Part shown: in pieces, positions 1,392 to 23,228 of the stretch
Layout: every line of letters begins with the position of its first letter
Position numbering within the stretch: position 1 is the first letter of the stretch
IMG/VR virus record: IMGVR_UViG_3300028800_000311
Coordinates: 1 to 23,626 of that record
Strand: one strand, 5' to 3'
From: a virus
Length of the DNA stretch: 23,626 nt
The notes under the pieces: generated by a model
What the model saw: the letters and a program-made list of their open reading frames with translations, nothing else
Databases searched by the model: none
Told to the model about the DNA's origin: nothing
Made by a program: the position numbers and the translations under genes

Positions 1392-1407
1392 TGAAGGGAG
1401 GTTAAAC

Positions 1408-2150: not shown

Positions 2151-3896
2151 ATGACTCTGTCAAATACGGCAACGCCAAAGTACTACGGAGCGTTCCGTGA
2201 AGCAGTTCTTCGAGGAGAGATTCCGGTTAACCGGGAAGTCTCACTTGAGATGAACCGCATTGACGAGCTCATCCGCGATCCGAATTTCTACTACGACGAC
2301 GCAGCGATCGACGGGTTTATCAAGTACTGCGAGAACGAGCTCACACTGACTGACGGAAGCGATCTCTTCCTTCTGGACAGTTTTAAATTGTGGGCTGAGA
2401 GTCTTCTTGCCTGGTTCTACTTCGTCGAACGAAGTGTGTACGAGCCATATCCAGATGGCCATGGCGGTCGTTACGTACGCAAAGTTATTTGCAAACGACT
2501 TCGTAACAAGCAGTACTTGATCGTGGCCCGAGGATCGGCAAAGTCGATCTACGCCGAGTGCATTCAGTCATATTTCCTGAACGTGGATACATCGACGACG
2601 CATCAGATAACGGTTGCGCCGACGATGAAGCAGGCCGATGAGGTCATGTCACCGTTCAGGACTGCGATCACTCGCGCGAGAGGTCCTCTCTTTCAGTTCC
2701 TAACTGAGGGGTCGCTGCAGAACACCACAGGCTCAAGAGCCATGAGAGTCAAGCTAGCATCGACGAAGAAAGGCATCGAGAACTTCCTCACGGGATCGAT
2801 TCTCGAAGTCCGACCGATGTCTATCGCTAAGCTCCAGGGCTTGAGGCCTAAGATCTCGACGGTCGACGAGTGGCTTTCCGGTGATATTCGCGAGGATGTT
2901 ATCGGAGCTATCGAGCAGGGTGCTTCTAAGCTTGACGATTACATCATTGTCGCCATAAGTTCTGAAGGAACTGTGCGTAACGGCTCTGGCGATACGATCA
3001 AGCTTGAGTTGGCTGACATTCTCAATGATGTTTACCCGAACCCGCATGTTTCCATATGGTATTACAAGCTGGACGAGCTCGCAGAAGTCGCGGATCCAGC
3101 TATGTGGCCGAAGGCGAACCCCAATATCGGGCAAACTGTTTCTTACGATGTCTATCAACTGGATGTTGAACGGGCTGAGAAAGCTCCAGCATCCAGGAAC
3201 GATATTCTCGCTAAGAGATTCGGTATACCGATGGAGGGGTTCACGTACTTCTTTACCTATGAAGAGACAGTTCCGCATCGTAAGCGCGAATTCTGGCGCT
3301 TGCCGTGTGCTATGGGCGCTGACCTCTCACAAGGTGACGACTTCACGGCATTCACCTTCATATTCCCGCTAGCTAATGGATCTTTCGGCGTTAAGACGAG
3401 AAGTTATATTTCCAGTCTGACACTGATGAAGCTTCCAGGAGCTATGCGGCACAAGTACGACGAATTCACGAACGAAGGCAGTCTTCACGTCCTCGATGGC
3501 GTTGTCCTCGACATGATGGAAGTTTACGAGGACCTCGAACGATTCATCGCCGCGAACGAATACGACGTGCGAGCTTTCGGGTTCGACCCGTACAACGCCA
3601 AGGAATTCGTCACGCGCTGGGAAGCTGAGAACGGTCCGTTCGGGATCGAGAAGGTTATCCAGGGAGCTAGGACTGAATCGGTTCCTCTTGGCGAGCTCAA
3701 GACCTTGTCAGAAGAACGCATGCTCATATTCGACCAGGCTCTTATGAGCTTCGCCATGGGTAACGCGATAACTATCGAGGACACGAACGGCAACCGCAAG
3801 CTTCTGAAGAAGCGGCAAGAGCAGAAGATCGACAACGTCGCTGCTTTGATGGATGCCTGGGTCGCATACAAGCTCAACAAGGACTCGTTTGAGTAG
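2151..3896 (+). CDS. terL: Terminase large subunit
   Basis: This 581-residue protein is the DNA-packaging motor and nuclease that docks on the portal. The N-terminal ATPase has a variant P-loop, ARGSAKS, at residues 126-132, and a Walker B-type segment, KISTVDEW, with Asp239-Glu240. The C-terminal RNase H-like nuclease shows the expected acidic residues: Asp391 in AMGADLSQGDD, Asp479 in AFGFDPYNA, and a late Asp561 or Asp568 in QKIDNVAALMDAW. Length is normal for the HK97-like terminase families. The ATG at 2151 follows GAGAGGAGG with good spacing. The order terminase, small gene, portal, protease-capsid fits a siphovirus head block. No small terminase gene was seen in this window; it may lie to the left. 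Confidence 0.95.
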   Translation: MTLSNTATPKYYGAFREAVLRGEIPVNREVSLEMNRIDELIRDPNFYYDDAAIDGFIKYCENELTLTDGSDLFLLDSFKLWAESLLAWFYFVERSVYEPYPDGHGGRYVRKVICKRLRNKQYLIVARGSAKSIYAECIQSYFLNVDTSTTHQITVAPTMKQADEVMSPFRTAITRARGPLFQFLTEGSLQNTTGSRAMRVKLASTKKGIENFLTGSILEVRPMSIAKLQGLRPKISTVDEWLSGDIREDVIGAIEQGASKLDDYIIVAISSEGTVRNGSGDTIKLELADILNDVYPNPHVSIWYYKLDELAEVADPAMWPKANPNIGQTVSYDVYQLDVERAEKAPASRNDILAKRFGIPMEGFTYFFTYEETVPHRKREFWRLPCAMGADLSQGDDFTAFTFIFPLANGSFGVKTRSYISSLTLMKLPGAMRHKYDEFTNEGSLHVLDGVVLDMMEVYEDLERFIAANEYDVRAFGFDPYNAKEFVTRWEAENGPFGIEKVIQGARTESVPLGELKTLSEERMLIFDQALMSFAMGNAITIEDTNGNRKLLKKRQEQKIDNVAALMDAWVAYKLNKDSFE

Positions 3897-3905: not shown

Positions 3906-4256
3906 ATGGCAACAGACGATGAAGTAGACGAATTCTTTGCTCACCATGGCGTCAAGGGCATGCACTGGGGTGTCAGGAAGGCCGAGCGAGCTGCACGCGA
4001 TCAGTCAATTCGCGACGCAAGAGCAAAAAACGTCAGTCGTATGGTAGAGACTAACAACCAGATTGTTAAGTTGAACCTTGCGACTACCGAGAAAGGCAAA
4101 GTGGCCGCAGTAAAGGCCATCAACCAGCTGCAGAAAGATGCAGACGAGTCGGGCGACAACAAGCTGGCCGCACAGAGAACTTCAGGAGAGAAAGCCGCCT
4201 CTGCTGTTCTTATCACAGCGGGCGCTGTTCTAGCTGCCAGGATCCTTCTCGGATGA
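3906..4256 (+). CDS. Small protein with HHGVKGMHWGVRK motif
   Basis: The product has 116 residues and starts at an ATG preceded by GGGAGG (3896-3901). Residues 13-25 are HHGVKGMHWGVRK, almost the same motif as in the gene before the terminase; in both cases it follows a (D/E)EF(F/L) segment. The middle (about 26-90) is charged and likely helical. The last 20 residues (ASAVLITAGAVLAARILLG) are hydrophobic and could form a membrane segment. It lies between terminase (9 bp gap) and portal (34 bp gap), so it is expressed with the packaging genes. Function unknown. The shared layout of motif, charged helix and hydrophobic C-terminus suggests that it and the 1408 gene act together or are distant relatives. 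Confidence 0.8.
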   Translation: MATDDEVDEFFAHHGVKGMHWGVRKAERAARDQSIRDARAKNVSRMVETNNQIVKLNLATTEKGKVAAVKAINQLQKDADESGDNKLAAQRTSGEKAASAVLITAGAVLAARILLG

Positions 4257-4290: not shown

Positions 4291-5604
4291 ATGGCTGTAA
4301 TGAGCGGTATAGTCTCATGGCTTAAGCACGGATGGAACGCCTTCGTCGCGCTTGACAGGAATGCCCCCCAGCCTTGGAACGAAGGGCCTAGCTACAGTTA
4401 CAGGCCCGACAGAACTCGTTTCCGTATGTCGAATGAGCGATCGATCATCGCATCGATCTTGACTCGCATCGGAATCGACGCAGCAGCTGTGGATATTCGC
4501 CACGTCAAGCAGGATAATAACGGGCGATACGTTGCTGACATGCCTAGTGGGCTGAATGACTGCCTGACTGTTGAAGCCAACCTTGATCAAGGTGCCAGAG
4601 CATTCAGGCAAGACGCGGTTATGACACTTCTGGACAAGGGCGCCATTGCGATTGTTCCCGTCGACACAACCATGAATCCCCTGGATTCTGGAAACTACGA
4701 CGTTAAGTCCCTTCGCGTCGGCGAAGTCATCATGTGGATGCCCCAGAGTGTCACGGTGAGAGTTTACAATGACCGTAAAGGGCTGAAGGAAGACATAATA
4801 CTTCCCAAGAAGTTCGTTGCGATCGTTGAGAACCCGCTGTACACGATCATGAACGAGCCTAACAGCACGTTGCAACGGCTCATCAGGAAGCTCAACTTGC
4901 TGGATGCAGTGGATGAACAGTCTGCTTCCGGAAAGCTTGATCTTATCATCCAGCTTCCTTACGTGATTAAGACAGAGACACGTCGTGCCGAGGCAGAGAA
5001 GCGGCGCAAGGAGATCGAGGTCCAGCTTAAGGGTTCCCAGTACGGAATTGCTTATGCTGACGGCACTGAGAAGATCACCCAGCTTAACAGGCCGGCCGAG
5101 AACAACCTTCTTGAGCAGATCAACTACCTCACCACGATGCTTTACGGCCAACTCGGCCTCACTGATGAAGTGATCAACGGTACGGCTGACGAAGCCACGA
5201 TGATCAACTACTATAACAGAACGATTGAACCCATTCTCTCTGCCATTGCAGAAGCGATTAAGCGAGCTTTCCTTACTAAAACAGCACGGTCACAGGGCCA
5301 GTCTATTATGGTCCTTAACAACCCGTTCAAACTTGTCGCGGCGACGGTTCTTGCCGAGATGGCTGACAAGTTTACCAGGAACGAGATCCTCTCGTCTAAC
5401 GACATGCGGGCCATTCTTGGATACAAGCCTTCTACCGACCCGAAGGCTGACCAGCTACTCAACAAGAACATCCCAGCAGCATATGCTGAACTACCGCAGG
5501 ACGGAGTTGCCCTGAAGAAGCCTGTGCTTCCGCCCAGATCTCCGTTCCCGCAAGTTCCGACAATACCACAAGGAGTTGCTAGTCAAAATGGCACCGGCCC
5601 CTGA
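4291..5604 (+). CDS. Portal protein
   Basis: The product has 437 residues. The portal forms the ring at the head vertex through which DNA is packaged and to which the tail connectors bind. The N-terminal part (RFRMSNERSIIASILTRIGID at about 43-63) and the region at about 251-315, with LLEQINYLTTMLYGQLGLT and MINYYNRTIEPIL, resemble the stem and clip regions of SPP1/HK97-type portals; the segment NEILSSNDMRAILGYKPS follows towards the C-terminus. The tail is Pro-rich (residues about 410-430), as is common for portals. The ATG at 4291 has AGGAGG upstream (4276-4281); a second ATG four codons in (4303) is possible. The 3' end overlaps the protease start by 17 bp. Confidence 0.9.
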   Translation: MAVMSGIVSWLKHGWNAFVALDRNAPQPWNEGPSYSYRPDRTRFRMSNERSIIASILTRIGIDAAAVDIRHVKQDNNGRYVADMPSGLNDCLTVEANLDQGARAFRQDAVMTLLDKGAIAIVPVDTTMNPLDSGNYDVKSLRVGEVIMWMPQSVTVRVYNDRKGLKEDIILPKKFVAIVENPLYTIMNEPNSTLQRLIRKLNLLDAVDEQSASGKLDLIIQLPYVIKTETRRAEAEKRRKEIEVQLKGSQYGIAYADGTEKITQLNRPAENNLLEQINYLTTMLYGQLGLTDEVINGTADEATMINYYNRTIEPILSAIAEAIKRAFLTKTARSQGQSIMVLNNPFKLVAATVLAEMADKFTRNEILSSNDMRAILGYKPSTDPKADQLLNKNIPAAYAELPQDGVALKKPVLPPRSPFPQVPTIPQGVASQNGTGP

Positions 5605-7645
5605 TTTCACCGGGTATGCCACCCGGAATGGCCTCAAGTGCGCGGACGGCAGGATCATCATGGCCGGTGCCTTCAAGGGCAACAACGGCCAGAAGGTTCC
5701 GCTGCTTTGGCAGCACGGTCACAACGATCCCGACAACGTGCTCGGTCACGCGATTCTCACCAACGTTGAAGACGGCGTGCGAGCTGACGCGTACTTCAAC
5801 GAGAACCCGAAGTCGCAGCGAGCAAAGCAGCTGGTCCTCCACGGGGACATCACAGCGCTCAGCATCTACGCGAACCAGCTCATGCAGAAGGGCCAGAATG
5901 TCCATCACGGAAACATCCGTGAGGTCAGCCTGGTCATCTCCGGAGCGAACCCTGGCGCGTACATCGACCCCGTCGTCATGCGGCACGGCGACGAGGAAGT
6001 TGAACTCGCCGATGAGGCCATCATTTACACCGGTCTCACCATCGAGCACGCAGCGGCCGTCGCCGACGCAAAGCCGGAAGCAAAGGACCCGGAGAAGAAG
6101 ACGGTCACGCCGACCGCCTCCAACCCGGACCCTGACAAGGACGGCGACAACGACCTATTTGATCCGGAGGATGGCGGGTTGGGACCTGACGCCACAGTGG
6201 CTGACGTCTTCAAGACGTTCACGCCCGAACAGCAGAACGTGGTTTACGCGCTTATCGGCGCTGCACTCGACAACGCCAACTCAGGCGATACCGCTCACTC
6301 CGGCATCCAAGGCGCCGGTGACAATGATGAAGGAGATGTTGTGACCCGCAATGTGTTCGACCAGACCGGCCAGGACCAGGCGCCTGCCCAGACCGGCTAC
6401 ACCCTGACGCATGCCGATATCAAGGGCATCGTCGCCGCTGGCATGAAGTGCGGCAGCCTGAAGACGGCTGCCGAGGACTTCGCCCTCGCGCACGGCATCG
6501 ACAGCATCGATGTCATGTTCCCCGAGGTCAAGCTGCTCACCAACGAGCCGGACTTCCAGTCCCGGCGGATGGAGTGGGTGCAGGGCGTTCTCTCGGCGAC
6601 CCGGAAGTCCCCGTTCAGCCGGGTCAAGACGATCCTGGCGGACATCACCCCGGACGAGGCCCGCGCCAAGGGCTACATCAAGGGGAACATGAAGAACGAG
6701 GAGTTCTTCGGCGTCACCAAGCGCACCACCACGCCGACCACGGTGTACAAGAAGCAGAAGCTCGACCGGGACGACATCCTGGACATCACCGACTTCGACG
6801 TGGTCGCCTGGATGAAGACCGAGATGCGGCTCATGCTGGACGAGGAGGTCGCGCGCGCGATCCTCATCGGCGACGGCCGTGACATCTCGAGTGCGGACAA
6901 GATCAAGGACCCGGCGGGCGCTTCCGACGGTGCCGGCATCCGGTCCGTCCTGAACGACCACGAGATCTACACGACCACCATCAACGTCAACATCGACGAC
7001 GCCAACTCGACGGCGGACGAGATCGTGGACGCGATCGTGAACGGCATGCGGTTCTACCGCGGCACCGGCCAGCCGGTGTTCTACACGACCCTGCCGGTCC
7101 TCACGAAGCTGCTGCTCGCCAAGGACACCCTCGGCCGGAGGCTCTACCAGACCAAGGCTGACCTCGCGGCGGCCATGATGGTCCGGGACATCGTTCCTTG
7201 CGAGCCGATGGAGGAGGAGACCAGCCTGCTCGGTCTCATCGTCAACCTGGCGGACTACAACATCGGTGCCGACAGCGGCGGGGAGGTGTCGTTGTTTGAT
7301 TTCTTCGACATCGACTTCAACCAGCAGAAGTACCTGATCGAGACCCGCCTGTCCGGCGCCCTGGTCAAGTTCAAGTCCGCCCTGGCCGTCATGAAGGTCG
7401 ACTCCGCTGACGTCCTGGTCGACCCGCTGATCCCGCCGACCCAGTCCGGCAACGCCGTGTCCGGCGCCAACCAGACGCACGTGACCTACGTCGCGACCGG
7501 TGCGAACGGCGCCGTCACGATCTCCAGCGGTGCGTTCACCGTGACCACCGCCAACACGCCGGTCACCGTCCAGGCCTCCCCGGCATCCGGCTACTACTTC
7601 GCGTCCAACGCGGAGGACAGCTGGACCTTCAACTACCAACCGTAA
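5588..7645 (+). CDS. Prohead protease-major capsid fusion
   Basis: One 685-residue frame holds two head proteins. Residues 1 to about 135 look like an HK97-type (S78) prohead protease. The likely catalytic residues are His43 or His45 in WQHGH and Ser92 in ITALSIYA, with Glu112 in REVSLVISGANP. An acidic, Pro/Asp-rich linker follows (about 150-240), which may act as the scaffold-like delta region. From about 252 on is the HK97-fold capsid protein, with EEFFGVTKRTTTPTTVYKK, LDITDFDVVAWMKTEMRLML and ARAILIGDGR. Residues about 620-685 form an extra beta-rich domain ending in ASPASGYYFASNAEDSW. The ATG at 5588 follows AAGGAG at 5570-5575 at a slightly long distance (12 nt). The fusion is seen directly; family assignments come from known motifs. 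Confidence 0.9.
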   Translation: MAPAPDFTGYATRNGLKCADGRIIMAGAFKGNNGQKVPLLWQHGHNDPDNVLGHAILTNVEDGVRADAYFNENPKSQRAKQLVLHGDITALSIYANQLMQKGQNVHHGNIREVSLVISGANPGAYIDPVVMRHGDEEVELADEAIIYTGLTIEHAAAVADAKPEAKDPEKKTVTPTASNPDPDKDGDNDLFDPEDGGLGPDATVADVFKTFTPEQQNVVYALIGAALDNANSGDTAHSGIQGAGDNDEGDVVTRNVFDQTGQDQAPAQTGYTLTHADIKGIVAAGMKCGSLKTAAEDFALAHGIDSIDVMFPEVKLLTNEPDFQSRRMEWVQGVLSATRKSPFSRVKTILADITPDEARAKGYIKGNMKNEEFFGVTKRTTTPTTVYKKQKLDRDDILDITDFDVVAWMKTEMRLMLDEEVARAILIGDGRDISSADKIKDPAGASDGAGIRSVLNDHEIYTTTINVNIDDANSTADEIVDAIVNGMRFYRGTGQPVFYTTLPVLTKLLLAKDTLGRRLYQTKADLAAAMMVRDIVPCEPMEEETSLLGLIVNLADYNIGADSGGEVSLFDFFDIDFNQQKYLIETRLSGALVKFKSALAVMKVDSADVLVDPLIPPTQSGNAVSGANQTHVTYVATGANGAVTISSGAFTVTTANTPVTVQASPASGYYFASNAEDSWTFNYQP
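6330..6343 (+). promoter_or_regulatory. Internal ribosome binding site and GTG start for the capsid
   Basis: AAGGAG at 6330-6335 stands 5 nt before an in-frame GTG at 6341, inside the protease-capsid frame and exactly between the two halves. This is a better-placed signal than the one in front of the full-length frame. Confidence 0.65.
6341..7645 (+). CDS. Major capsid protein from an internal in-frame start
   Basis: Translation from GTG 6341 (codon 252 of the fusion) would give a 434-residue capsid protein beginning (M)TRNVFDQTGQDQ. That matches the point where I recall stand-alone capsid proteins of this family beginning, near an 'NVF' segment. The 30 codons before the start have about 16 ending in G/C; the 46 codons from the start have about 40, and later stretches are nearly all G/C-ending, as expected for the most abundant virion protein. 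The product holds the HK97-fold region plus the extra C-terminal beta domain. The alternative is that only the fusion is made and the protease cuts it. Both routes could operate. Confidence 0.65.
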   Translation: MTRNVFDQTGQDQAPAQTGYTLTHADIKGIVAAGMKCGSLKTAAEDFALAHGIDSIDVMFPEVKLLTNEPDFQSRRMEWVQGVLSATRKSPFSRVKTILADITPDEARAKGYIKGNMKNEEFFGVTKRTTTPTTVYKKQKLDRDDILDITDFDVVAWMKTEMRLMLDEEVARAILIGDGRDISSADKIKDPAGASDGAGIRSVLNDHEIYTTTINVNIDDANSTADEIVDAIVNGMRFYRGTGQPVFYTTLPVLTKLLLAKDTLGRRLYQTKADLAAAMMVRDIVPCEPMEEETSLLGLIVNLADYNIGADSGGEVSLFDFFDIDFNQQKYLIETRLSGALVKFKSALAVMKVDSADVLVDPLIPPTQSGNAVSGANQTHVTYVATGANGAVTISSGAFTVTTANTPVTVQASPASGYYFASNAEDSWTFNYQP

Positions 7646-11976: not shown

Positions 11977-12357
11977 ATGTCCGTCGATATTACGCAGACA
12001 GGGGACTGGAGCAAGACGTCGTCATATCTGCAAAGGATGGCGAAGCTTGACATCAGTCAGCAACTCCATGCTTACGGTCAAGCTGGCGTGTATGCGCTTT
12101 CAGCAGCAACACCGAAGCGTTCGGGTAAGACCGCGGAATCCTGGTATTACAAGGTATCCCGGTCAGGGAATACCTGGTTCGTTGGATGGTACAACTCCAA
12201 TGTCCACGAAAGCGTTCCGATCGCAATTCTCATTCAGTACGGTCACGGAACTGGATCTGGTGGGTATATTCAAGGCCGCGATTTCGTTAATCCGGCTATC
12301 AGGCCAGTCTTTGACATGATAACTTCGGGTGTGTGGAAGGTGGTGACATCGGATTGA
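11977..12357 (+). CDS. HK97 gp10-like tail completion protein
   Basis: The product has 126 residues. The pattern SAATPKRSGKTAESWYYKV, then HESVPIAILIQYGHGTGSGGYIQGRDFVNPAIRPVFD, is that of the HK97 gp10-like family that finishes the tail at its head-proximal end. The ATG at 11977 follows AGGAGA (11967-11972); the frame is open upstream but overlaps the adhesin gene. The usual place of this gene is between the stopper and the tail terminator; here it lies after the fibre genes and overlaps the tape measure start by 4 bp. Confidence 0.85.
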   Translation: MSVDITQTGDWSKTSSYLQRMAKLDISQQLHAYGQAGVYALSAATPKRSGKTAESWYYKVSRSGNTWFVGWYNSNVHESVPIAILIQYGHGTGSGGYIQGRDFVNPAIRPVFDMITSGVWKVVTSD

Positions 12358-15300
12358 GCAGTGTTGACGAGCGCGTCGTTGAGATGACGTTCAAGAATTC
12401 GGACTTCATCAAGAATGTTCAAGCGACGCTCACCGTCCTTCAAGCCCTGAAAGACAAGCTGAACTTCAAAGGCGCTACTGATAGCCTTAATGCTCTTGAC
12501 AGCGCCGGTAAGGGATTTTCGCTATCAGGCATTGGTAGTGCGCTTGATACCGTAGCATCAAAGTTCTCGACAATGGGACTCATAGGGATTACAGTCCTTA
12601 CCAATATTGTCAACAGAGCGATCGATGCAGGCATTGAGATTACCAAAGCTCTGGCGATTGATCCCATTAAAGAAGGTTTCTCGAACTATGAGAACCAGAT
12701 CAACTCGACCAAGACTATCATGGCGAACACGGGCGCTTCGCTCGACGTTGTCACAAGTAAGCTTAACGAGCTAAACACTTACGCTAATCAGACAATTTAC
12801 AGCTTCAACGACATGTCGACAGCGATTGGCACATTTAGCGCCGCCGGTGTCCCACTTAACCAGGCTGTTGGCGCTATTAAGGGCATGGGTAACTCGGCAG
12901 CCTTGTCTGGCGCGGGAGTTACTCAACTCCAGTCAGCCATGTACCAGATGAGTCAGGCTCTTGCCGGCGGTGTTATCAAGCTCCAGGACTGGAACTCTCT
13001 GCAGCAGGCGCAGGTTGCCTCCGGGAAGAACTTCCAGCAGGTGTTCGAAGACACCTCGGCGTCGATGGGCAAGAATGTCGATGCGATTGTCAAGGCACAA
13101 GGTGGTTTCAGGAACTCCCTGCAGACCGGCTGGCTGACGGCGGACGTCTTTACCAAGGCCATGAACATTATGGCCGGCCAGATCGACCAGACCACCGGTA
13201 AGACGGTTGCATACAGCGTTGCTCAGATCCAGGCAATGGGCTATACGAAGGCTCAGGCTGAGAATCTTAACAGGCTATCAGCGGCGGCCATTAGCTCTGC
13301 TACGCAAATCCGCACCTTCACGCAGCTGATGGATACGCTGAAGGATGAAGTGGCGACAGCGTGGGCCACAGTCTTCAAATCGCTTATCGGAGATCTTCCA
13401 GCTGCAGCACATGAGTTTACTGCGCTGCACACGGTTCTTGAGAACCTGCTAACCAACCCGATTTATGCTCTGAATAACTTCATCCAGCAGCTGGCTAAGC
13501 TAGGCGCTATCGACCTGATCGTCCAGTCGATGATTGACGTCTTCCATGCCTTGTCTGCTGTCTTCAAGGCGGTCGGCGATGCTTACCGGGAGATCTTCCC
13601 GCCGGTTAGCGCCGACACCGTTGCCAAGCTGATCCAGAAGTTCGAAGAGTTCACGTACAGTTTGATTCCGACGAAGGCCGGCATCAACGAGATTCGTGAC
13701 ATCTTCGTGGATCTGTTCTCGGCTGTTAAGATCGTCATCGACATCATTGGTGACGTCGCCAAGGGATTTGACGGCGTCGGAAGCTCAGCTGCCTCGGGCG
13801 GTAAGAGCATCCTTGGTGTCATCAGTTACCTGCTGAACTACGTGAATGCGCTCCTTCAGATCATTGAGGGCAACGCTAAGTTCGCGGACTTCTTTCAGGG
13901 CCTGGGCGCCATCCTCAGCTCACCGATCAGGCTTATCGCTGATGCGGCAGGCGGATTCAACCTTCTCGGCAAGGGCATTCAGGATGCCTGGACAGTCGCT
14001 AAGCCCATCTTCGACTTGATCGGTAATGCGATCGGTTCGCTGGGCAAGTCGATCGCCGCCAGCATTCAAAATGGGAGTTTCCAGAACGTTGTTAACACGT
14101 TCAACCAGATTGTCCTCGGCGGAATTCTTCTGAGCATTAAGAAGTTCATAGACAGCCTGAGCAAGGAGAAGGAAGGCGCAGGCCTCTTCGACACCATCAA
14201 GGAGTCGTTCGAGAGCCTGACAGGCGCGTTGAAGTCCATGCAGGCGGAACTCAAGTCAGCAACGCTTGAGAAGATCGCCATTGCTGTCGGACTTCTGACA
14301 CTGTCGATCATCGCCCTGTCCTACGTCAATGTTCAGAACCTCACGAAGAGCCTGACCGCAATCACAGCTGAGTTCATTCAGCTGGTTGCGTCAATGGTTG
14401 TTATCGACAAGCTTTCTGGAACTGCAGGATTCATCAAGCTTCCGCTCATAGCGGCGTCCATTGTCTTGCTGGCTGGCGCAATCGTCATCCTTTCAGCAGC
14501 GGTCGTTATCCTAGGGCACCTTAGCTGGGATGAGATAGTCAAGGGCCTGACGGCAATTACGGCTTTGCTGGCAGACCTGACGGCGACAATCTTGATTCTC
14601 GGAAGAAACCCCACGGGTCTTTACTCCACGGCAATCGGGATCGAAGTCATCGCTGTAGCCATGAACATCATGGCCGCAGCCGTAGGCAAGCTCGGCGCGA
14701 TGGACTGGCAGACCCTTCTCAAGGGTGTCGGGACAATCGCCGCGTTGCTTCTCGTGATGGCTGGATTCAATGCCATCTCTGCAGGCGGAGCAGAACTGAT
14801 CACCACGGCAGCAGCAATGGTGATCGTCGGAGCAGCCATCACGATCCTCGCTGGAGCCATTGACACACTGGGTAAGCAGCCTCTTGACGTCCTTGCAAAG
14901 GGACTTGGGACTATCGCTGCAGCCATGTTGATCATATCTGGCGGGCTATATTTGATGGAAGGCGCTCTTCCTGGAGCAGCCGCCCTCGTTGTAGCCTCCG
15001 CAGCGATCGTGATCTTGGCCGGAGCTCTTACCAGTCTCGGCGGATTGTCATGGACTGACATAGCGCAGGCTCTGGTAGTCCTGGCTGGATCGCTTGTGAT
15101 CATCGGGACTGCGCTCATATTCATGGAGGCGTCGCTTCCGGGTTCTGCAGCTCTCATTGTAGCTGCAGCTGCACTTGCTATTCTCGCACCAGTGCTTGTC
15201 GTACTAAGCACTTTGTCATGGGAAGGCATAGCGAAGAGTCTAGTAGCTCTTGCAGGAGCGTTCCTTGTCATCGGTGTGGCCGGCCTGGTTCTTGGTCCGC

Positions 15301-16571
15301 TGACTCCGGTTCTTCTTGCCTTCGGCGCTGCGATAGCACTTCTCGGCATCGGCATATTGGCGGCCGGAATCGGCGTAGCAGCCTTCGGAGTCGGCCTGAC
15401 TGCGGTCGCCGTGTCTGGTGGAGCAGCATTTGCCGTCCTTGTTGGCGGAATCGAAGCTCTGCTAGGCATCCTCCCGACCGTGGTTGTGACCCTCGGCAAG
15501 ACGATCGCTCAGTTTGCGGTAGCTCTCCAGCAAGCTGCACCGCCCGTTATTGCGGCTTTCACGGCCATCATGACTCAGCTGCTGAACGCGGTTATCGTCC
15601 TCGCGCCGAAGATTGCACAAGCAGCAACGGCCTTGATAACGGCTATCCTGACAGTTATCGCGGCTAATTCGCCGAAGATCATCTCAACGATGGCGACACT
15701 AGTCATCAATCTTCTAACCCAGCTAACAACCAACACGCCTAAGTTCATAGCGGCTGGCGTCAGCCTTATCATCGCTATATTTAACGGCATGTCGGCTAAC
15801 GTTTCGAAGGTTGTCGGCGCAGCGACCACGATGATTACCAACTTCATCGCGGCTATCGGCGCTAGCGCCCTTCGGATTACGCAAGCCGGTGCGACGATGG
15901 TTATCAACTTCGTGAACGGCCTTGCTGCGCAGATCAATGCGGATGCACCGGCAATGCGGGCTGCGGGTGTCAACTTGGCCCTGGCGATCATCAACGGCAT
16001 GACTGGCGGTATTCTCGGCGGAATCCCGTCGATCGTGAGCGCCGCTCAGAGCATGGCCCAGTCTGCGCTGAACGCCGCTAAGAGCCTGCTTGGGATCAAC
16101 TCACCATCCAAGGAATTCCAGTACGTAGGCGAAGGCATTCCTGAGGGCACCGTCGTTGGCATCAATAACGGCACTGGCGACGTCGAAGACGCTGCGGCAA
16201 ACATGGGCTCCAAGGCACTAGATGCCATGAAGAACAGCCTTGCGGCGGTTAACGATGCGGTCAATTCCGGCATCGATCTACAGCCGAAGATCACGCCTGT
16301 TATCGACCTGACGCAAGCCAAGGCCGGTTTCAGCACGCTCAACGGCATGTCGAAGAGTCAGCTGATCTCTGCGAATGTGTCGACCAACAAGGCGACGTCC
16401 ATATCTTCGGACAATGCAGAGACCGCTATCGCCCTGGGTATTAACCCTGCGGCTGGCACGAACTTGACCTTCGTGCAGAACAACACATCACCGAAGGCGC
16501 TCGATGCCGCAACAATCTACCGCCAGACGAAGAACCAGATCTCTCAAGTGAAGGGGGCGCTTCCCTCGTAA
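12354..16571 (+). CDS. Tape measure protein
   Basis: The product has 1405 residues from TTG 12354, which overlaps the TGA of the gp10-like gene; AAGGTGGTG at 12338-12346 is the ribosome binding site, and relatives I recall begin 'SSVDERVVEMTF'. A GTG at 12333 is the alternative but has no separate signal. The N-terminal region (about 100-300; ENQINSTKTIMANTG, MYQMSQALAGGVIKLQDWNSLQQA) is the common tape measure domain. Residues about 660-1020 are very hydrophobic and contain about five repeats of 56-60 residues. A second hydrophobic helical region follows, and LGINSPSKEF near residue 1248 is the typical late motif. No lysozyme or peptidase domain was seen. By the usual rule of about 0.15 nm per residue the tail would be near 200 nm. 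Confidence 0.95.
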   Translation: MSSVDERVVEMTFKNSDFIKNVQATLTVLQALKDKLNFKGATDSLNALDSAGKGFSLSGIGSALDTVASKFSTMGLIGITVLTNIVNRAIDAGIEITKALAIDPIKEGFSNYENQINSTKTIMANTGASLDVVTSKLNELNTYANQTIYSFNDMSTAIGTFSAAGVPLNQAVGAIKGMGNSAALSGAGVTQLQSAMYQMSQALAGGVIKLQDWNSLQQAQVASGKNFQQVFEDTSASMGKNVDAIVKAQGGFRNSLQTGWLTADVFTKAMNIMAGQIDQTTGKTVAYSVAQIQAMGYTKAQAENLNRLSAAAISSATQIRTFTQLMDTLKDEVATAWATVFKSLIGDLPAAAHEFTALHTVLENLLTNPIYALNNFIQQLAKLGAIDLIVQSMIDVFHALSAVFKAVGDAYREIFPPVSADTVAKLIQKFEEFTYSLIPTKAGINEIRDIFVDLFSAVKIVIDIIGDVAKGFDGVGSSAASGGKSILGVISYLLNYVNALLQIIEGNAKFADFFQGLGAILSSPIRLIADAAGGFNLLGKGIQDAWTVAKPIFDLIGNAIGSLGKSIAASIQNGSFQNVVNTFNQIVLGGILLSIKKFIDSLSKEKEGAGLFDTIKESFESLTGALKSMQAELKSATLEKIAIAVGLLTLSIIALSYVNVQNLTKSLTAITAEFIQLVASMVVIDKLSGTAGFIKLPLIAASIVLLAGAIVILSAAVVILGHLSWDEIVKGLTAITALLADLTATILILGRNPTGLYSTAIGIEVIAVAMNIMAAAVGKLGAMDWQTLLKGVGTIAALLLVMAGFNAISAGGAELITTAAAMVIVGAAITILAGAIDTLGKQPLDVLAKGLGTIAAAMLIISGGLYLMEGALPGAAALVVASAAIVILAGALTSLGGLSWTDIAQALVVLAGSLVIIGTALIFMEASLPGSAALIVAAAALAILAPVLVVLSTLSWEGIAKSLVALAGAFLVIGVAGLVLGPLTPVLLAFGAAIALLGIGILAAGIGVAAFGVGLTAVAVSGGAAFAVLVGGIEALLGILPTVVVTLGKTIAQFAVALQQAAPPVIAAFTAIMTQLLNAVIVLAPKIAQAATALITAILTVIAANSPKIISTMATLVINLLTQLTTNTPKFIAAGVSLIIAIFNGMSANVSKVVGAATTMITNFIAAIGASALRITQAGATMVINFVNGLAAQINADAPAMRAAGVNLALAIINGMTGGILGGIPSIVSAAQSMAQSALNAAKSLLGINSPSKEFQYVGEGIPEGTVVGINNGTGDVEDAAANMGSKALDAMKNSLAAVNDAVNSGIDLQPKITPVIDLTQAKAGFSTLNGMSKSQLISANVSTNKATSISSDNAETAIALGINPAAGTNLTFVQNNTSPKALDAATIYRQTKNQISQVKGALPS
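14520..15400 (+). repeat. Diverged 56-60 residue hydrophobic repeats in the tape measure gene
   Basis: Five units start at residues 723, 783, 842, 898 and 954 of the protein (nt 14520, 14700, 14877, 15045, 15213). Four of the five open with (L/M)(S/D)W, followed by about GL-x-x-I-A-A-L and, near the unit's end, ILAGA-x-x-x-LG or a variant. They are recognisable at protein level only. Confidence 0.65.
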
Positions 16572-20616: not shown

Positions 20617-20943
20617 ATGAACAGCAAGGTGTACGACGTCCTCAAGCCGATCGCCATGATCTGGCTCCCGGCATTCGCATCCTTCTACTTCGCAGTGGCC
20701 TCGATCTGGGGCTTTCATGACACCACGGCCGTGATCGGGACCCTGTCGGCGGCCGACGCTTTCCTTGGAGTCATCCTCGGGATCTCATCCAAGATCTACA
20801 CACCCCCGGTCGACGGCGCCATCGTGGTTGACAACAACGGCCTCAAGACAGTTCAGCTTCCCGGCCTCGAGGCTCACCAGATCGCGGCGAAGCCAACCCT
20901 TACTCTGCAGGTCAAGAACGAGACGACCGGCGCACCTTCGTAA
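20617..20943 (+). CDS. Holin
   Basis: The product has 108 residues from ATG 20617, with AGGGG about 8 nt upstream. Two hydrophobic helices lie at about 10-31 (KPIAMIWLPAFASFYFAVASIW) and about 37-58 (TAVIGTLSAADAFLGVILGISS), joined by a short polar turn, with a soluble C-terminal half of about 50 residues. This is the plan of the small r1t-type/actinophage holins that perforate the membrane at lysis. Codons are strongly G/C-ending. No endolysin was found on either side in the window, which is unusual but not rare in actinophages, where the lysin gene may stand elsewhere. Confidence 0.8.
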   Translation: MNSKVYDVLKPIAMIWLPAFASFYFAVASIWGFHDTTAVIGTLSAADAFLGVILGISSKIYTPPVDGAIVVDNNGLKTVQLPGLEAHQIAAKPTLTLQVKNETTGAPS

Positions 20944-20977
20944 TTCGCGAGGAAAACAAGTCCTATGATGAGAATCA
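20944..20977 (+). repeat. 34-bp start-associated element, copy R0
   Basis: The most diverged of six copies. It keeps TTCGCG, AAAACAAG and CCT, then reads ATGATGAG where others have TAATGAAG. In this copy the element contains the start codon of the 20965 gene. Confidence 0.6.
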
Positions 20978-21297
20978 ATGAAAGGACTAAAGTGTTTAGC
21001 CTCAAGAAGAATGAAGAAGAGCTACGCCGCCTTGAAGAGGCACTGGACCGAGCCATTCTAGATCTCGGGAACTACCCAAGCAATTCCAAGGAGTACGCAT
21101 CCATCGCCAACGCCGTCAAGGTGCTCGCCGAAGCCAACGCAGTCGACCAGACTACGTACAAGAGGCCTTCGGTGAGCCCTGAGACGATGGCCACGATCGG
21201 TGCGAACCTCGTTGGGATCTTGATGATCCTGAACTACGAACGAGCGCACGTCCTCACCTCCAAGGCGATGCAGTTCATCGTCAAGACAAAGATCTGA
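20965..21297 (+). CDS. Conserved-looking small protein, helical with hydrophobic C-terminal segment
   Basis: The product has 110 residues from ATG 20965 (ATG 20968 also possible); GAGGA at 20949-20953 is the likely ribosome binding site. The N-terminal half is charged and probably coiled coil (KKNEEELRRLEEALDRAI). The segment VSPETMATIGANLVGILMILNYERAHVLTSKAMQFI near the C-terminus contains a hydrophobic stretch and a pattern (SP-T-A--G-NL-GIL--L-YE---V-TSKA) that I recall from small phage proteins of unknown function in many actinophages. It is the last gene before the terminator at 21334. Confidence 0.8.
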   Translation: MMRINERTKVFSLKKNEEELRRLEEALDRAILDLGNYPSNSKEYASIANAVKVLAEANAVDQTTYKRPSVSPETMATIGANLVGILMILNYERAHVLTSKAMQFIVKTKI

Positions 21298-21333
21298 CCA
21301 CAGAGTCGACAAAGATTCGTCAAAATGGGAGTT

Positions 21334-21398
21334 CCGCGTAAGCAGCCAGTCAACATACGGTTGCTTACGCGGGATTTCTGTTTTGTATTTTCGTTTTA
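21334..21398 (+). terminator. Strong intrinsic terminator of the late operon
   Basis: CCGCGTAAGCA (21334-21344) pairs perfectly with TGCTTACGCGG (21362-21372), an 11-bp stem with a 17-nt loop. A T-rich run (GATTTCTGTTTTGTATTTTC and on to 21398) follows at once. It stands 37 bp after the last gene of the structural/lysis block, so it probably ends late transcription. Confidence 0.85.
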
Positions 21399-21406
21399 AA
21401 AAATTC

Positions 21407-21425
21407 CCGGGGGGATTTTCCCCGG
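21407..21425 (+). other. Short G/C hairpin after the terminator
   Basis: CCGGGG (21407-21412) can pair with CCCCGG (21420-21425) around a 7-nt loop. No T run follows, so it is not a typical terminator. It separates an AT-rich stretch (TTTTAAAAAATT at 21394-21405) from repeat copy R1. It may protect the 5' end of the next transcript or be incidental. Confidence 0.45.
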
Positions 21426-21429
21426 AGGA

Positions 21430-21463
21430 GTCGCGGCAGAAACAAGCCGTCTAATGAAGCCCC
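21430..21463 (+). repeat. 34-bp start-associated element, copy R1
   Basis: It contains TCGCGG, AGAAACAAG, TCTAATGAAGCCCC. It ends 16 bp before the ATG at 21480. Confidence 0.8.
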
Positions 21464-21479
21464 TACGAAAGGACCCACC

Positions 21480-21710
21480 ATGAAGCTGAATGAAAACCTT
21501 TGTGCGGCCATCGACGGCATCAACATGACCCTCTCGAACACCACCGACGAGATCAAGCAGGTCCTCGAGAGCGACAACCTCGTCTACAAGACGAAGCGCC
21601 TCATCGAGATCAATGCTGAACTCCAAGTCGGACTTGAGTTCGCGAAGAAGGATGTTGAGAAGGAGATCGATCGCCAGAGGAACAAGAAGTTCTGGCAGTT
21701 CTGGAAGTAG
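21480..21710 (+). CDS. Small coiled-coil protein with aromatic C-terminus
   Basis: The product has 76 residues from ATG 21480; AAAGGA about 8 nt upstream is the ribosome binding site. It is highly charged and predicted helical throughout (DEIKQVLES, KTKRLIEINAEL, KKDVEKEIDRQR). It ends in KKFWQFWK, a basic aromatic tail that could sit on a membrane surface. It follows element R1 and is followed 8 bp later by hairpin H1. No family recognised. Confidence 0.75.
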   Translation: MKLNENLCAAIDGINMTLSNTTDEIKQVLESDNLVYKTKRLIEINAELQVGLEFAKKDVEKEIDRQRNKKFWQFWK

Positions 21711-21717
21711 CTTAAAG

Positions 21718-21747
21718 CCTAGCCCCGACAAGGGGTTTAGGTTTCTC
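21718..21747 (+). other. Intergenic hairpin H1 with GGTTTCTC tail
   Basis: CCTAGCCCC (21718-21726), loop GACAA, then GGGGTTTAGG (21732-21741) with one bulged T and one G-T pair, followed by TTTCTC. It is the sequence-variant member of the H family. A weak terminator or RNA processing site is possible. Confidence 0.65.
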
Positions 21748-21780
21748 TCGCGTGAAAAACAAGGTCTCTAATGAAACCCC
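21747..21780 (+). repeat. 34-bp start-associated element, copy R2
   Basis: It contains CTCGCGT, GAAAAACAAG, CTCTAATGAAACCCC. It follows H1 directly and ends 15 bp before the ATG at 21796. Confidence 0.85.
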
Positions 21781-21795
21781 GTTAAAGGAGAGATT

Positions 21796-22014
21796 ATGAG
21801 CCTCAAGAAAGATGTTATTAACCTCCAGGCGATTTTCCCCACCATATCAGCAGACGACGCAGAAACTCTTGCGCGCTTCCACCGCCGCGTTAAAAACGCG
21901 AACCGGCTAGTTGTTGCGCGAGCAGTACTCACGCCTGTTGCCGTTGGTGTGGCAGTCGGCCTGGTCGTTACATTCGTCAATAAACTTGATAACGAATCGA
22001 CCGAAACCGAGTAA
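21796..22014 (+). CDS. Small single-pass membrane protein
   Basis: The product has 72 residues from ATG 21796, with AAAGGAGAG just upstream (21784-21792). The N-terminal 37 residues are soluble and basic towards the membrane side (FHRRVKNANR). One hydrophobic helix lies at about 38-61 (LVVARAVLTPVAVGVAVGLV and on), and the short C-terminus is acidic (DNESTETE). By the positive-inside rule the N-terminus should face the cytoplasm. It has R2 in front and H2 behind. No family recognised. Confidence 0.75.
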   Translation: MSLKKDVINLQAIFPTISADDAETLARFHRRVKNANRLVVARAVLTPVAVGVAVGLVVTFVNKLDNESTETE

Positions 22015-22018
22015 CCAA

Positions 22019-22048
22019 AGAGCCCCTAACACGGGCTTTAGGTTTCTC
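22019..22048 (+). other. Intergenic hairpin H2 with GGTTTCTC tail
   Basis: AGAGCCC (22019-22025) pairs with GGGCTTT (22033-22039) including one G-T pair, loop CTAACAC, then AGGTTTCTC. Loop and tail are the same as in H3 and H4. Confidence 0.75.
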
Positions 22049-22054
22049 TTATAT

Positions 22055-22088
22055 TTCGCGTCAAAAACACGTCCTCTAATGAAGACCC
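22055..22088 (+). repeat. 34-bp start-associated element, copy R3
   Basis: It contains TTCGCGT, CAAAAACACG, CCTCTAATGAAGACCC. It lies 6 bp after H2 and ends 22 bp before the ATG at 22111. Confidence 0.85.
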
Positions 22089-22110
22089 ACTTTGTGAAGG
22101 GATGATACTA

Positions 22111-22290
22111 ATGAAGAAGCAGATCGCCGCCACGAAGGAATTCGTCAAGCGCAACCAGACCAAGATCCTGGTCACCGCCCTTACCGTTGTTACGGTAGGT
22201 GCGATGATCCAGCGACAGGAGCTGAACGCGCACAACGACTTCCTCCGCGAGCACGGCCTGTACGAAGAGTTCACCGCCGACGAAGAGTAA
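22111..22290 (+). CDS. Small single-pass membrane protein
   Basis: The product has 59 residues. ATG 22111 is preferred because GAAGGG (22096-22101) is 9 nt before it; an in-frame ATG at 22102 abuts that signal. The N-terminus is basic (KKQIAATKEFVKRNQTK), then comes a short hydrophobic helix at about 18-34 (KILVTALTVVTVGAMIQ) and an acidic soluble C-terminus of about 25 residues (LREHGLYEEFTADEE). The N-terminus is expected in the cytoplasm. It is followed 9 bp later by H3. No family recognised. Confidence 0.75.
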   Translation: MKKQIAATKEFVKRNQTKILVTALTVVTVGAMIQRQELNAHNDFLREHGLYEEFTADEE

Positions 22291-22299
22291 TAAACCAAC

Positions 22300-22328
22300 G
22301 AGCCCCTAACACGGGCTCTAGGTTTCTC
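22300..22328 (+). other. Intergenic hairpin H3 with GGTTTCTC tail
   Basis: GAGCCC (22300-22305) pairs with GGGCTC (22313-22318) around CTAACAC, then TAGGTTTCTC. Bases 22300-22334 are identical to 22980-23014 (35 bp), including the start of the following ribosome binding site. Confidence 0.8.
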
Positions 22329-22340
22329 GAAAGGAGAAAA

Positions 22341-22580
22341 ATGAGTTTGTTCAACCGGCCTCCGCGAGTTATCGACAATAGTACCGGAGCGGATGTTACG
22401 CCCGGGCGTAAGGGGAGGCATCGCCGAACTGGTACCGGATGCACGGTTACCTGGGGTGAATGCGACACGCGCAGCAGTCGTTCCGAGGATGATGAAGAGC
22501 AGAAGCTCCCTCACGTCTGCGGCGAGTCTGGCGATCGTCACATTCATCGCTGCACGGCCTGCAATACCCCTCAGGCCTGA
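22341..22580 (+). CDS. Small Cys/His-rich, probably zinc-binding protein
   Basis: The product has 79 residues from ATG 22341, with AAAGGAG at 22330-22336. The first 30 residues are basic. Likely metal ligands are Cys34, Cys41, His58, Cys60, His67, His69, Cys71 and Cys74, the last part being HxC-x6-HxHxC-x2-C. The pattern resembles small phage zinc-binding proteins of unknown role. It is preceded by H3 with no R element between. A longer frame shifted by one base (22393-22611) overlaps it but lacks a ribosome binding site. Confidence 0.65.
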   Translation: MSLFNRPPRVIDNSTGADVTPGRKGRHRRTGTGCTVTWGECDTRSSRSEDDEEQKLPHVCGESGDRHIHRCTACNTPQA

Positions 22581-22586
22581 CGCATA

Positions 22587-22620
22587 TTCGCGTAGAAAAC
22601 AAGGCCTCTAATGAAGAGAG
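22587..22620 (+). repeat. 34-bp start-associated element, copy R4
   Basis: It contains TTCGCGT, AGAAAACAAG, CCTCTAATGAAGAGAG. It ends 7 bp before the ATG of a 21-codon ORF. Confidence 0.85.
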
Positions 22621-22627
22621 CAATGCA

Positions 22628-22693
22628 ATGAGCAATCGAATCTTGACTGTGCGAATCAGTTGCCGAGTAGTAATACGTTCGGTAAGGGAATGA
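22628..22693 (+). CDS. Possible 21-residue micro-ORF
   Basis: ATG 22628 to TGA 22693 encodes a very basic peptide (MSNRILTVRISCRVVIRSVRE). The only ribosome binding signal is GAAGAGAG at the end of R4. It is supported by its place behind an R element, as in the other small genes. It may instead be the remains of a decayed gene, since 22621-22735 holds nothing else. Confidence 0.3.
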   Translation: MSNRILTVRISCRVVIRSVRE

Positions 22694-22735
22694 GATTGCA
22701 AATGCTGGACGTGAAAATCGTCTGCTTTCTTTTCT

Positions 22736-22769
22736 CTCGCGTCAGAAACCAGCCCTTTAATGAAGCCCC
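22736..22769 (+). repeat. 34-bp start-associated element, copy R5
   Basis: It contains CTCGCGT, CAGAAACCAG, CTTTAATGAAGCCCC. It ends 25 bp before the ATG at 22795 and is preceded by a pyrimidine-rich stretch (22721-22735). Confidence 0.8.
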
Positions 22770-22794: not shown

Positions 22795-22971
22795 ATGTCT
22801 GAACTGAACACCGAAGAGCAGCCCGAAACTACCGAGCCGTCCCGTGCGCAGAAGATCGCCGCCGCCGTTACCACGGTCGTCGTGACCCTCGCCATTGGCC
22901 TCGCCGCCACCGGCCTGTCCGACAAGGTCAACAAGCAGATCAACGCCATGATCCTGAAGACCGACGCCTGA
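22795..22971 (+). CDS. Small single-pass membrane protein
   Basis: The product has 58 residues from ATG 22795, with AGAAGAAGGA just upstream; the frame is open to 22660 but that part overlaps R5. The N-terminus is acidic (ELNTEEQPETTEPS), one hydrophobic helix lies at about 20-41 (KIAAAVTTVVVTLAIGLAATGL), and a short C-terminus carries four Lys residues. Codons are strongly C-ending. The charge pattern is the reverse of the 21796 and 22111 products, so the topology could differ. H4 starts 6 bp after it. Confidence 0.75.
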   Translation: MSELNTEEQPETTEPSRAQKIAAAVTTVVVTLAIGLAATGLSDKVNKQINAMILKTDA

Positions 22972-22977
22972 AAGCCT

Positions 22978-23008
22978 TAGAGCCCCTAACACGGGCTCTA
23001 GGTTTCTC
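22978..23008 (+). other. Intergenic hairpin H4 with GGTTTCTC tail
   Basis: TAGAGCCC (22978-22985) pairs with GGGCTCTA (22993-23000) around CTAACAC, an 8-bp stem that a flanking CC/GG pair can extend; then GGTTTCTC. It is the most complete member of the family and 35 bp are identical to H3. Confidence 0.85.
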
Positions 23009-23024
23009 GAAAGGGAGTTAACCC

Positions 23025-23228
23025 ATGGAACAGCCACAAGTCATCTATATCAAGATCCGTCCGCGCACCATTATCAAGGCCACGGTCATCGCCAGCCTGA
23101 CATATTCCGGCATGCGAGCCGTCGTGCATCTCCTTCTCCCGCCGGTCACTGCGCTCAACGACCGGGTCCAGGAAGCGAACGAGAAACTCAAGCAGCAGGC
23201 GCAGGTGTTATGGGCATCGGAGACCTGA
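23025..23228 (+). CDS. Small membrane-associated protein with C-terminal helix
   Basis: The product has 67 residues from ATG 23025, with AAAGGGAG at 23010-23017. A basic start (YIKIRPRTIIK) leads into a hydrophobic stretch at about 16-40, then a polar helix (NDRVQEANEKLKQQAQ). It overlaps the next gene by 19 bp, so the two are probably made together. No family recognised. Confidence 0.7.
   Translation: MEQPQVIYIKIRPRTIIKATVIASLTYSGMRAVVHLLLPPVTALNDRVQEANEKLKQQAQVLWASET

What the first reader, a model, noticed from the sequence alone, without database searches (positions are those of the whole stretch)
20944..22769. A gap-free 34-bp element repeated six times in front of tiny genes
Copies start at 20944, 21430, 21747, 22055, 22587 and 22736, and all align over 34 bp without a gap. 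The shared skeleton is (T/C)TCGCGT at the left, AAACAAG in the middle and CTCTAATGAAG at the right. Five of six lie 7-25 bp before an ATG of a small gene; R0 contains the ATG itself. The layout recalls the start-associated sequences of some mycobacteriophages, but the sequence is not one I know. A spaced -35/-10 pair does not fit it (TCGCGT to TCTAAT leaves about 13 nt), so it may be a promoter for an unusual sigma factor, an operator, or an RNA element acting on translation.
Basis: partly seen in the sequence, partly recalled or inferred. Interest (0 to 1): 0.78.

Follow-up and report, generated by a model that had tools for sequence, protein, structure and literature searches.

The report
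Promoter of a phage-encoded RNA polymerase
A short DNA sequence repeated six times in this soil phage is a promoter (a start signal for making RNA) shared by a large family of phages, most likely read by the phages' own single-protein RNA polymerase, a type of enzyme whose start signals are mostly unknown, so the idea can now be tested directly.

Summary
The six copies are real: all on the + strand, 0.01 expected by chance. They belong to a widespread phage element with rigid spacing, TCGC(G/A)-N5-WACAnG-N3-TATAATGA. Of 759 non-redundant copies collected, 75% stand about 51 nt before a start codon with a Shine-Dalgarno site (15% at random positions) and 43% directly follow a terminator hairpin (7%). 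Some drive tRNAs or non-coding RNAs; copy 5 in the window (22587) looks like one of these. So the element acts on transcription, not translation. In 72 records the sites of each record lie on one strand only. No TTGACA box is enriched.

In the non-coding units, bases 2-4 after TATAAT covary with the 3' terminator arm (Fisher p 2e-5 to 2e-3), so the RNA begins at or next to TATAAT, too early for a sigma-70 promoter. The same phages encode a ~905-residue RNA polymerase (PHROG_4291; SGADFDGD; best structural match QDE-1). Lactococcus phage 1706 has this enzyme and a diverged element. Gordonia cluster DJ papers reported the motif as a sigma-70 promoter.

Best reading: sigma-independent promoter of a YonO/QDE-1-like phage polymerase. 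Promoter: about 0.95. Read by that enzyme: about 0.68. There are no transcript data, and the window is a fragment without the polymerase gene.

The parts
20944..20977 (+). element copy 1 (TTCGCGAGGAAAACAAGTCCTATGATGAGAATCA); promoter of the gene starting at GTG 20992
20992..21297 (+). small gene behind copy 1, GTG start with Shine-Dalgarno GAAAGGA; PHROG_5818 (unknown function)
21321..21385 (+). long inverted repeat followed by a T-rich tail: likely terminator of the first small gene
   Evidence: (I1), sequence
21430..21463 (+). element copy 2; promoter of gene at ATG 21480
21480..21710 (+). small gene behind copy 2 (76 aa, no family found)
21718..21747 (+). terminator-like hairpin CCTAGCCCC-GACAA-GGGGTTTAGG with tail TTTCTC, directly before copy 3
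   Evidence: (D3), sequence
21747..21780 (+). element copy 3; promoter of gene at ATG 21796
21796..22014 (+). small gene behind copy 3 (72 aa)
22019..22049 (+). terminator-like hairpin GAGCCCCTAACACGGGCTTTAGGTTTCTC
   Evidence: (D2)
22055..22088 (+). element copy 4; promoter of gene at ATG 22111
22111..22290 (+). small gene behind copy 4 (59 aa, PHROG_12653)
22299..22329 (+). terminator-like hairpin, same repeat; followed directly by a Shine-Dalgarno site and gene 22341 without an element
   Evidence: D2
22587..22620 (+). element copy 5; promoter of a non-coding RNA-like unit, not of a tiny gene
22612..22736 (+). predicted non-coding RNA; GAAGAGAGC at its 5' end pairs with GCTTTCTTTTC at its 3' end; fold alone is only mildly stable (z -1.4)
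   Evidence: class-wide statistics
22736..22769 (+). element copy 6; promoter of gene at ATG 22795
22795..22971 (+). small gene behind copy 6 (58 aa)
22979..23009 (+). terminator-like hairpin, same repeat, behind the last unit
   Evidence: D2

Best explanation
Each copy is a directional promoter for one short transcription unit (one tiny gene, a tRNA or a small non-coding RNA), often placed right behind the terminator of the unit before. It is most likely recognised by the phage's own single-chain RNA polymerase of the two-barrel (YonO/QDE-1) superfamily, without a host sigma factor. The box TCGC(G/A)-N5-(A/T)ACAnG is the recognition part, and TATAAT at a fixed 3-nt distance is the melting/start region. 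RNA synthesis begins at or 1-2 nt after TATAAT, which leaves a leader of about 25 nt with the Shine-Dalgarno site near its end. Shown by sequence statistics: the element, its geometry, strand bias, unit structure, co-occurrence with the polymerase gene, and covariation that places the RNA 5' end near TATAAT. Inferred: that the polymerase itself reads the element, that no sigma factor is needed, and that the window's phage (a fragment) has the polymerase.
For: Geometry: anchored on the downstream half only, TCGC and ACA come back at 92-100%; the box-to-TATAAT spacing is exactly 3 nt in 288 of 302. Direction: 83 matches in 22 records and 354 in 50 records, one strand per record, none for the reversed control. 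Units: 75% with SD and start codon against 15%, 43% with an upstream terminator against 7%; also before tRNA genes and ORF-less units. Start of RNA: positions 26-28 covary with the 3' arm of the closing stem, p 1.5e-5, 1.1e-4, 2.1e-3, register fixed from position 29. No -35 hexamer: TTGACA-like sequences are rarer than in shuffles. Polymerase: PHROG_4291 in 40 of 47 element-positive records; named-phage counts equal for Gordonia 55/55, Streptomyces 54/54, Rhodococcus 4/4, Siphovirus 12/12; invariant SGADxDGD; best fold match QDE-1, E 6.5e-9. Polymerase-positive phages outside these genera carry the element or a diverged form (1706 12 on +, 0 on -; Curtobacterium JoyLin 3/0). Close terminase relatives of the window, G004 and G005, encode the polymerase.
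Against: No transcript data. TATAAT is a perfect sigma-70 -10 hexamer. The polymerase is one of several co-inherited core genes, so co-occurrence does not single it out. Seven element-positive records show no polymerase, though they may be fragments. The window record itself has no polymerase gene. Sites are related by descent, so p-values overstate independence. The polymerase model is only moderately confident (pLDDT 75, pTM 0.53).
Confidence: 0.68

Rival explanations
1. Promoter of host RNA polymerase with its main sigma factor: TATAAT is the -10 box and a phage-encoded activator bound to the TCGC...ACAnG box replaces the -35 contact, as MotA does at phage T4 middle promoters.
For: Perfect TATAAT in 175 of 302 sites; no -35 hexamer; the box lies where such an activator would bind; DJ papers read TATAAT as a sigma-70 -10 (PMC9671010, PMC10868162).
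Against: RNA must include positions 26-28, which lie only 2-4 nt after TATAAT; G and A directly after TATAAT are conserved at 96-98%; Lactococcus 1706 has a changed box and TATAGT together with a distant polymerase.
Confidence: 0.22
2. Promoter read by a phage-encoded sigma factor together with host core polymerase.
For: Fixed, extended motif without a host -35; weak HTH/sigma-region-4-like matches inside the ~905-residue protein.
Against: That protein is a full-length two-barrel polymerase, and no separate sigma factor was recognised among the core families that were annotated; the early RNA start fits a sigma factor poorly.
Confidence: 0.06
3. Operator of a phage repressor or antirepressor (like stoperators or the SPbeta SPBRE), lying over ordinary promoters.
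For: Short asymmetric repeated intergenic motif in one direction.
Against: Conservation covers the start region as well; only three contigs in 84,980 species genomes, so no prophages; Vardy lacks an integrase (PMC9671010) and Rhodococcus cluster CC is predicted lytic (PMC13313380); no match in SPbeta.
Confidence: 0.03
4. RNA element acting on translation (start-associated sequence).
For: Constant distance to start codons.
Against: It precedes tRNAs and non-coding units too; a separate Shine-Dalgarno site follows; most of the motif lies upstream of the inferred RNA 5' end.
Confidence: 0.01

Closest known systems
43-50-bp MEME motif of Gordonia cluster DJ phages (Vardy PMC9671010, Conley PMC10868162, Mossy PMC11008172)
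   Same: The same element: it lies before small genes in the middle of the genome, contains TATAAT, and Vardy, Conley and Mossy are hit by the consensus.
   Different: Those papers read TATAAT as a sigma-70 -10, or the motif as a translational start site, and report it for one cluster only. They do not describe the TCGC/ACA box, the spread over other phage groups, the tRNA and RNA units, the early RNA start or the polymerase.
Promoters of the Thermus phage P23-45 single-chain two-barrel RNA polymerases (PMC10770324)
   Same: Phage-encoded single-chain polymerase of the QDE-1 type, repeated short promoter motif, motif shared by related phages with the enzyme.
   Different: Motif and polymerase are different in sequence; P23-45 promoters are mapped by cappable-seq and ChIP-seq, here there is no transcript evidence.
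YonO of Bacillus phage SPbeta (PMC5467207)
   Same: Single-chain two-barrel DNA-dependent RNA polymerase of a phage.
   Different: YonO transcribes one late operon and its promoter sequence was left undetermined; SPbeta gave no hit to PHROG_4291 and no element.
SAS/ESAS of cluster K mycobacteriophages and the SAS-like motif of Microbacterium cluster EF (PMC7302621)
   Same: Repeated motif at a constant place before start codons of small genes.
   Different: SAS covers the ribosome binding site itself; this element ends before it and also drives RNAs that are not translated.
Phage T4 middle promoters (MotA box plus -10; own knowledge)
   Same: A box at about -30 and a TATAAT hexamer without a -35 box.
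   Different: Different box and spacing; no MotA-like protein found; inferred RNA start is too close to TATAAT.
SPBRE/MrpR operator of SPbeta (PMC10516654)
   Same: Short repeated intergenic element in phage promoter regions.
   Different: 15-bp repressor site of a temperate phage; the element is not found in SPbeta.

Membership tests
promoter of a phage-encoded single-chain RNA polymerase | directional motif of fixed geometry at the start of transcription units | tested here: met
promoter of a phage-encoded single-chain RNA polymerase | the polymerase is encoded by phages that carry the motif | tested here: met
   40 of 47 element-positive records; matching named-phage counts; the window record itself is a fragment without it
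promoter of a phage-encoded single-chain RNA polymerase | motif absent from phages without the polymerase | tested here: met
   phiC31 and SPbeta: neither; only two such controls
promoter of a phage-encoded single-chain RNA polymerase | RNA 5' end at a fixed place next to the motif | tested here: inconclusive
   covariation places it at about positions 22-26; not mapped by experiment
promoter of a phage-encoded single-chain RNA polymerase | purified enzyme initiates at the motif | not testable with these tools
   needs in vitro transcription
sigma-70 promoter | -10 hexamer TATAAT | tested here: met
   175 of 302 sites exact; in the window the hexamers are TCTAAT (four), TATGAT and TTTAAT
sigma-70 promoter | -35 hexamer TTGACA at 16-18 nt | tested here: not met
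   depleted relative to shuffles
sigma-70 promoter | RNA start about 7 nt after the -10 hexamer | tested here: not met
   RNA includes bases 2-4 after TATAAT by covariation; indirect
SAS/ESAS of mycobacteriophages | motif covers the ribosome binding site of translated genes | tested here: not met
   separate Shine-Dalgarno site downstream; also before tRNA and ORF-less units
repressor operator / stoperator | temperate phage with a repressor; prophages carry the sites | tested here: not met
   three contigs in 84,980 species genomes, two of them small phage-like contigs
two-barrel RNA polymerase (YonO/QDE-1 superfamily), for PHROG_4291 | catalytic DxDGD loop | tested here: met
   invariant SGADxDGD in 15 sequences
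two-barrel RNA polymerase (YonO/QDE-1 superfamily), for PHROG_4291 | two-barrel fold | tested here: met
   Foldseek top match QDE-1, E 6.5e-9, prob 1.00, 878 columns; model moderately confident
two-barrel RNA polymerase (YonO/QDE-1 superfamily), for PHROG_4291 | RNA synthesis on DNA | not testable with these tools
   needs biochemistry
Gordonia cluster DJ 50-bp motif | the same element in cluster DJ genomes | tested here: met
   Vardy, Conley, Mossy and other DJ phages are hit by the consensus

The most novel reading that the evidence does not exclude
The element is a sigma-independent promoter for a QDE-1-like single-chain polymerase shared by phages of Actinobacteria and Firmicutes. RNA starts inside or directly after TATAAT. 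Besides tiny genes it drives a large undescribed class of small phage RNAs whose very first bases close the terminator stem, and promoter box and polymerase diverge together (TCGC form against the CACATGTTTTACAT form of Lactococcus phage 1706).
Probability: 0.5. Interest if true: 0.85.

Novelty: new variant of a known kind. Interest (0 to 1): 0.72.

Why it matters
The promoter sequence read by YonO was stated to be undetermined (PMC5467207), and for single-chain two-barrel phage polymerases few promoters are mapped. Here is an explicit consensus with hundreds of natural variants and culturable carriers (Gordonia, Arthrobacter, Streptomyces, Rhodococcus and Lactococcus phages). In many named genomes the polymerase is annotated only as a helix-turn-helix DNA-binding protein. 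If right, this gives a new orthogonal polymerase-promoter pair, explains how the many tiny cassette genes of these phages are expressed, and exposes a set of unstudied phage small RNAs.

Tried and rejected
phiC31 as a source of similar early promoters: genome scanned, no match. SPbeta SPBRE/MrpR operator: no match. T7-like RNA polymerase (PF00940): no hit in 50 records, but the control genomes did not ring either, so weak. A first box-anchored search had the wrong offset and gave noise; corrected. A first covariation test with the register fixed from position 31 gave no usable signal at 25-27, because those bases scarcely varied; resolved by adding units with GG after TATAAT and fixing the register from position 29. 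Another candidate factor, f3 (PHROG_4678, 26 of 28 genomes), was set aside because Lactococcus 1706 has the element form but no detectable homologue. Rfam: no known RNA family in the window, only a tRNA in 14 loci. The 18-nt hairpin GGACGTGAAAATCGTCTG of the window RNA occurs in only one other viral contig, also in an element-driven unit, about what chance would give for the count, so no RNA family could be built. The fold of the window RNA alone is only z -1.4.
Full report
OBSERVATION. The window (23,626 b, a whole IMG/VR record) holds six copies of the element, all on the + strand and all between 20,944 and 22,769. A 28-nt pattern with up to three mismatches finds these six and nothing else; shuffles give 0.01. 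Five copies precede a start codon with a Shine-Dalgarno site at 47, 49, 48, 55 and 58 nt from the T of TCGCG. For copy 1 the start is most likely GTG 20992, not the ATG inside the element: PHROG_5818 aligns from residue 2 to the end of that product. Copy 5 has no such start; it is followed by a 125-nt unit whose first bases pair with those before a T-rich tail.

WHAT SURROUNDS IT. The window codes for the left, structural half of a siphophage: terminase 2151-3896, fused protease-capsid 5576-7645, a tape-measure-like ORF 12333-16571, a holin-like gene 20617-20943. The element field begins right after the holin-like gene. Three near-identical terminator-like repeats and a related fourth (D2, D3) separate the units, so the field is a string of terminator-promoter-small gene cassettes. 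No copy lies in the structural region.

HOW WIDESPREAD. The logo is T-rich, then TCGCG, A-rich, AAAACAnG, three free bases, TATAATGAGACCCC. Forty-two contigs fetched only for a related terminase, so not chosen for the element, gave 83 matches in 22 records, one strand per record, none for the reversed control; all nineteen records above 37 kb had matches. Fifty element-positive records gave 354 matches, again one strand per record and no control match. Named phages: 189 records (Arthrobacter, Gordonia, Streptomyces, Rhodococcus, Microbacterium and metagenomic siphoviruses). Bacterial and archaeal genomes (84,980 species) gave three contigs, two of them small phage-like metagenome contigs with 7 and 6 copies.

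ANATOMY. Anchoring only on TATAATGAGACCCCTA (84 sites) recovers T-C-G-C at 98-100% and A-C-A at 92-99%, bases that were not selected for. Anchoring only on the box (302 sites) recovers TATAAT-like hexamers at exactly 3 nt in 288; part of that set came from loci chosen with the full pattern. TTGACA-like hexamers are depleted at the -35 place. Of 759 non-redundant sites, 75% have a Shine-Dalgarno site and start codon downstream, mostly 45-60 nt from the element start (random 15%), and 43% a terminator hairpin just upstream (random 7%). Some sites drive tRNAs (ReqiPepy6 tRNA-Ala; tRNA-like genes in L281 and L053) and many drive ORF-less units of median 77 nt. This makes it a promoter and excludes a translation element.

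WHERE RNA STARTS. In ORF-less units the first bases pair with the last bases before the T-run (42% with a strong stem, 6% when 3' ends are swapped). With the pairing register fixed only from position 29 on (TATAAT = positions 19-24, counted from 0 at the T of TCGC), the partners of positions 26, 27 and 28 follow the identity of those positions, A with T and G with C: Fisher p 1.5e-5, 1.1e-4 and 2.1e-3 in 73 units of 50 loci, little changed after removing near-duplicates. The RNA must therefore include these bases. A sigma-70 start would be near position 31. I infer a start at about positions 22-26; the exact base is not fixed.

WHO READS IT. Twenty-eight element-positive genomes of 30-60% GC share a core. 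Among it is a ~905-residue protein, PHROG_4291 'RNA-dependent RNA polymerase', in the named genomes at the right end, with invariant SGADxDGD and helix-turn-helix-like segments at both ends. An AlphaFold2 model (pLDDT 75) matched to solved structures gives QDE-1 first (E 6.5e-9, prob 1.00), then plant RDR2 and, weakly, cellular polymerase large subunits. It occurs in 40 of 47 element-positive records; phiC31 and SPbeta give no match to this family. In named phages its counts equal those of the element for Gordonia, Streptomyces, Rhodococcus and 'Siphovirus'; I compared counts and the listed rows, not complete accession lists. Phages from genera without a BLAST hit for the element (Lactococcus 1706, Curtobacterium JoyLin, a saliva Caudovirus) do contain it when read directly. 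In 1706, whose polymerase is distant, the box is changed to CACATGTTTTACAT and the hexamer to TATAGT followed by AGA. This fits a polymerase-promoter pair that diverges together. Other core genes are co-inherited, so the assignment remains an inference.

COMPARISON. Gordonia cluster DJ notes described the same motif and read its TATAAT as a sigma-70 -10 (PMC9671010, PMC10868162); another called it a predicted translational start site (PMC11008172). P23-45 is the nearest proven system: two single-chain two-barrel polymerases, each with its own promoter motif, mapped by cappable-seq (PMC10770324). YonO is the founding phage case, with undetermined promoter (PMC5467207). What appears new here is the common element across these phage groups, its two-part anatomy, the RNA units, the early start and the link to the polymerase. 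The literature library holds only open-licence papers, so earlier reports elsewhere (for instance the original 1706 and Rhodococcus phage papers) could not be checked.

LIMITS. There are no transcript data. The window is a fragment without the polymerase gene, although its close terminase relatives G004 and G005 carry it and G005 has element copies. Sites are related by descent, so p-values overstate independence.

Noticed in passing
L098, L114, L093, L221, L233, L219, L225 (ORF-less units behind the element): Many non-coding units hold tandem hairpin-like repeats with constant loops (e.g. GGTGCAAAAGGCGATAAATTCCCACACC, GGCGTATTGAACCC, GGACGGATTACCGACCC). They look like designed RNA decoys or sponges; none matches Rfam.
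   Followed up: partly
window 22706-22723 and L096 (minus strand, 3264-3281): The 18-nt hairpin GGACGTGAAAATCGTCTG at the 3' end of the window RNA occurs in one other viral contig only, there also in an element-driven ORF-less unit.
   Followed up: yes
window 1360-2136 and 3906-4256; N-terminus of the polymerase in L395: Two head-module proteins carry the DUF7211 tag (HxGVKGMHWGVRK). The polymerase begins with an invariant, poorly structured HYGxxRxSGRYPxGSG, loosely alike; it could be a virion-packaging signal, which would make the polymerase a virion enzyme.
   Followed up: no
window 3-1391: Long ORF made of about 20-residue repeats (LKKMKLAGSGNEKDVASGG and variants), weakly like DUF5907; function unknown.
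   Followed up: no
named phages: The polymerase gene of Arthrobacter, Gordonia, Streptomyces and Curtobacterium phages is mostly annotated as helix-turn-helix DNA-binding protein or hypothetical.
   Followed up: yes
L417 (QHXL01000552.1) and L418 (CAMYWN010000004.1): Small contigs binned into an Acidobacteria and a Saccharibacteria MAG carry 7 and 6 element copies; they look like phage contigs, so either mis-binned or a hint at hosts.
   Followed up: partly
window 22341-22580 and 23025-23228: Two small ORFs follow the terminator-like repeat with a Shine-Dalgarno site but no element, so they may depend on read-through.
   Followed up: no
L053 at 4368, L281 at 3554, L416 at 17851: tRNA or tRNA-like genes begin within a few bases of TATAAT and run directly into a T-run without an encoded CCA; ARAGORN gives the first two no clear identity and does not call the third.
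   Followed up: partly
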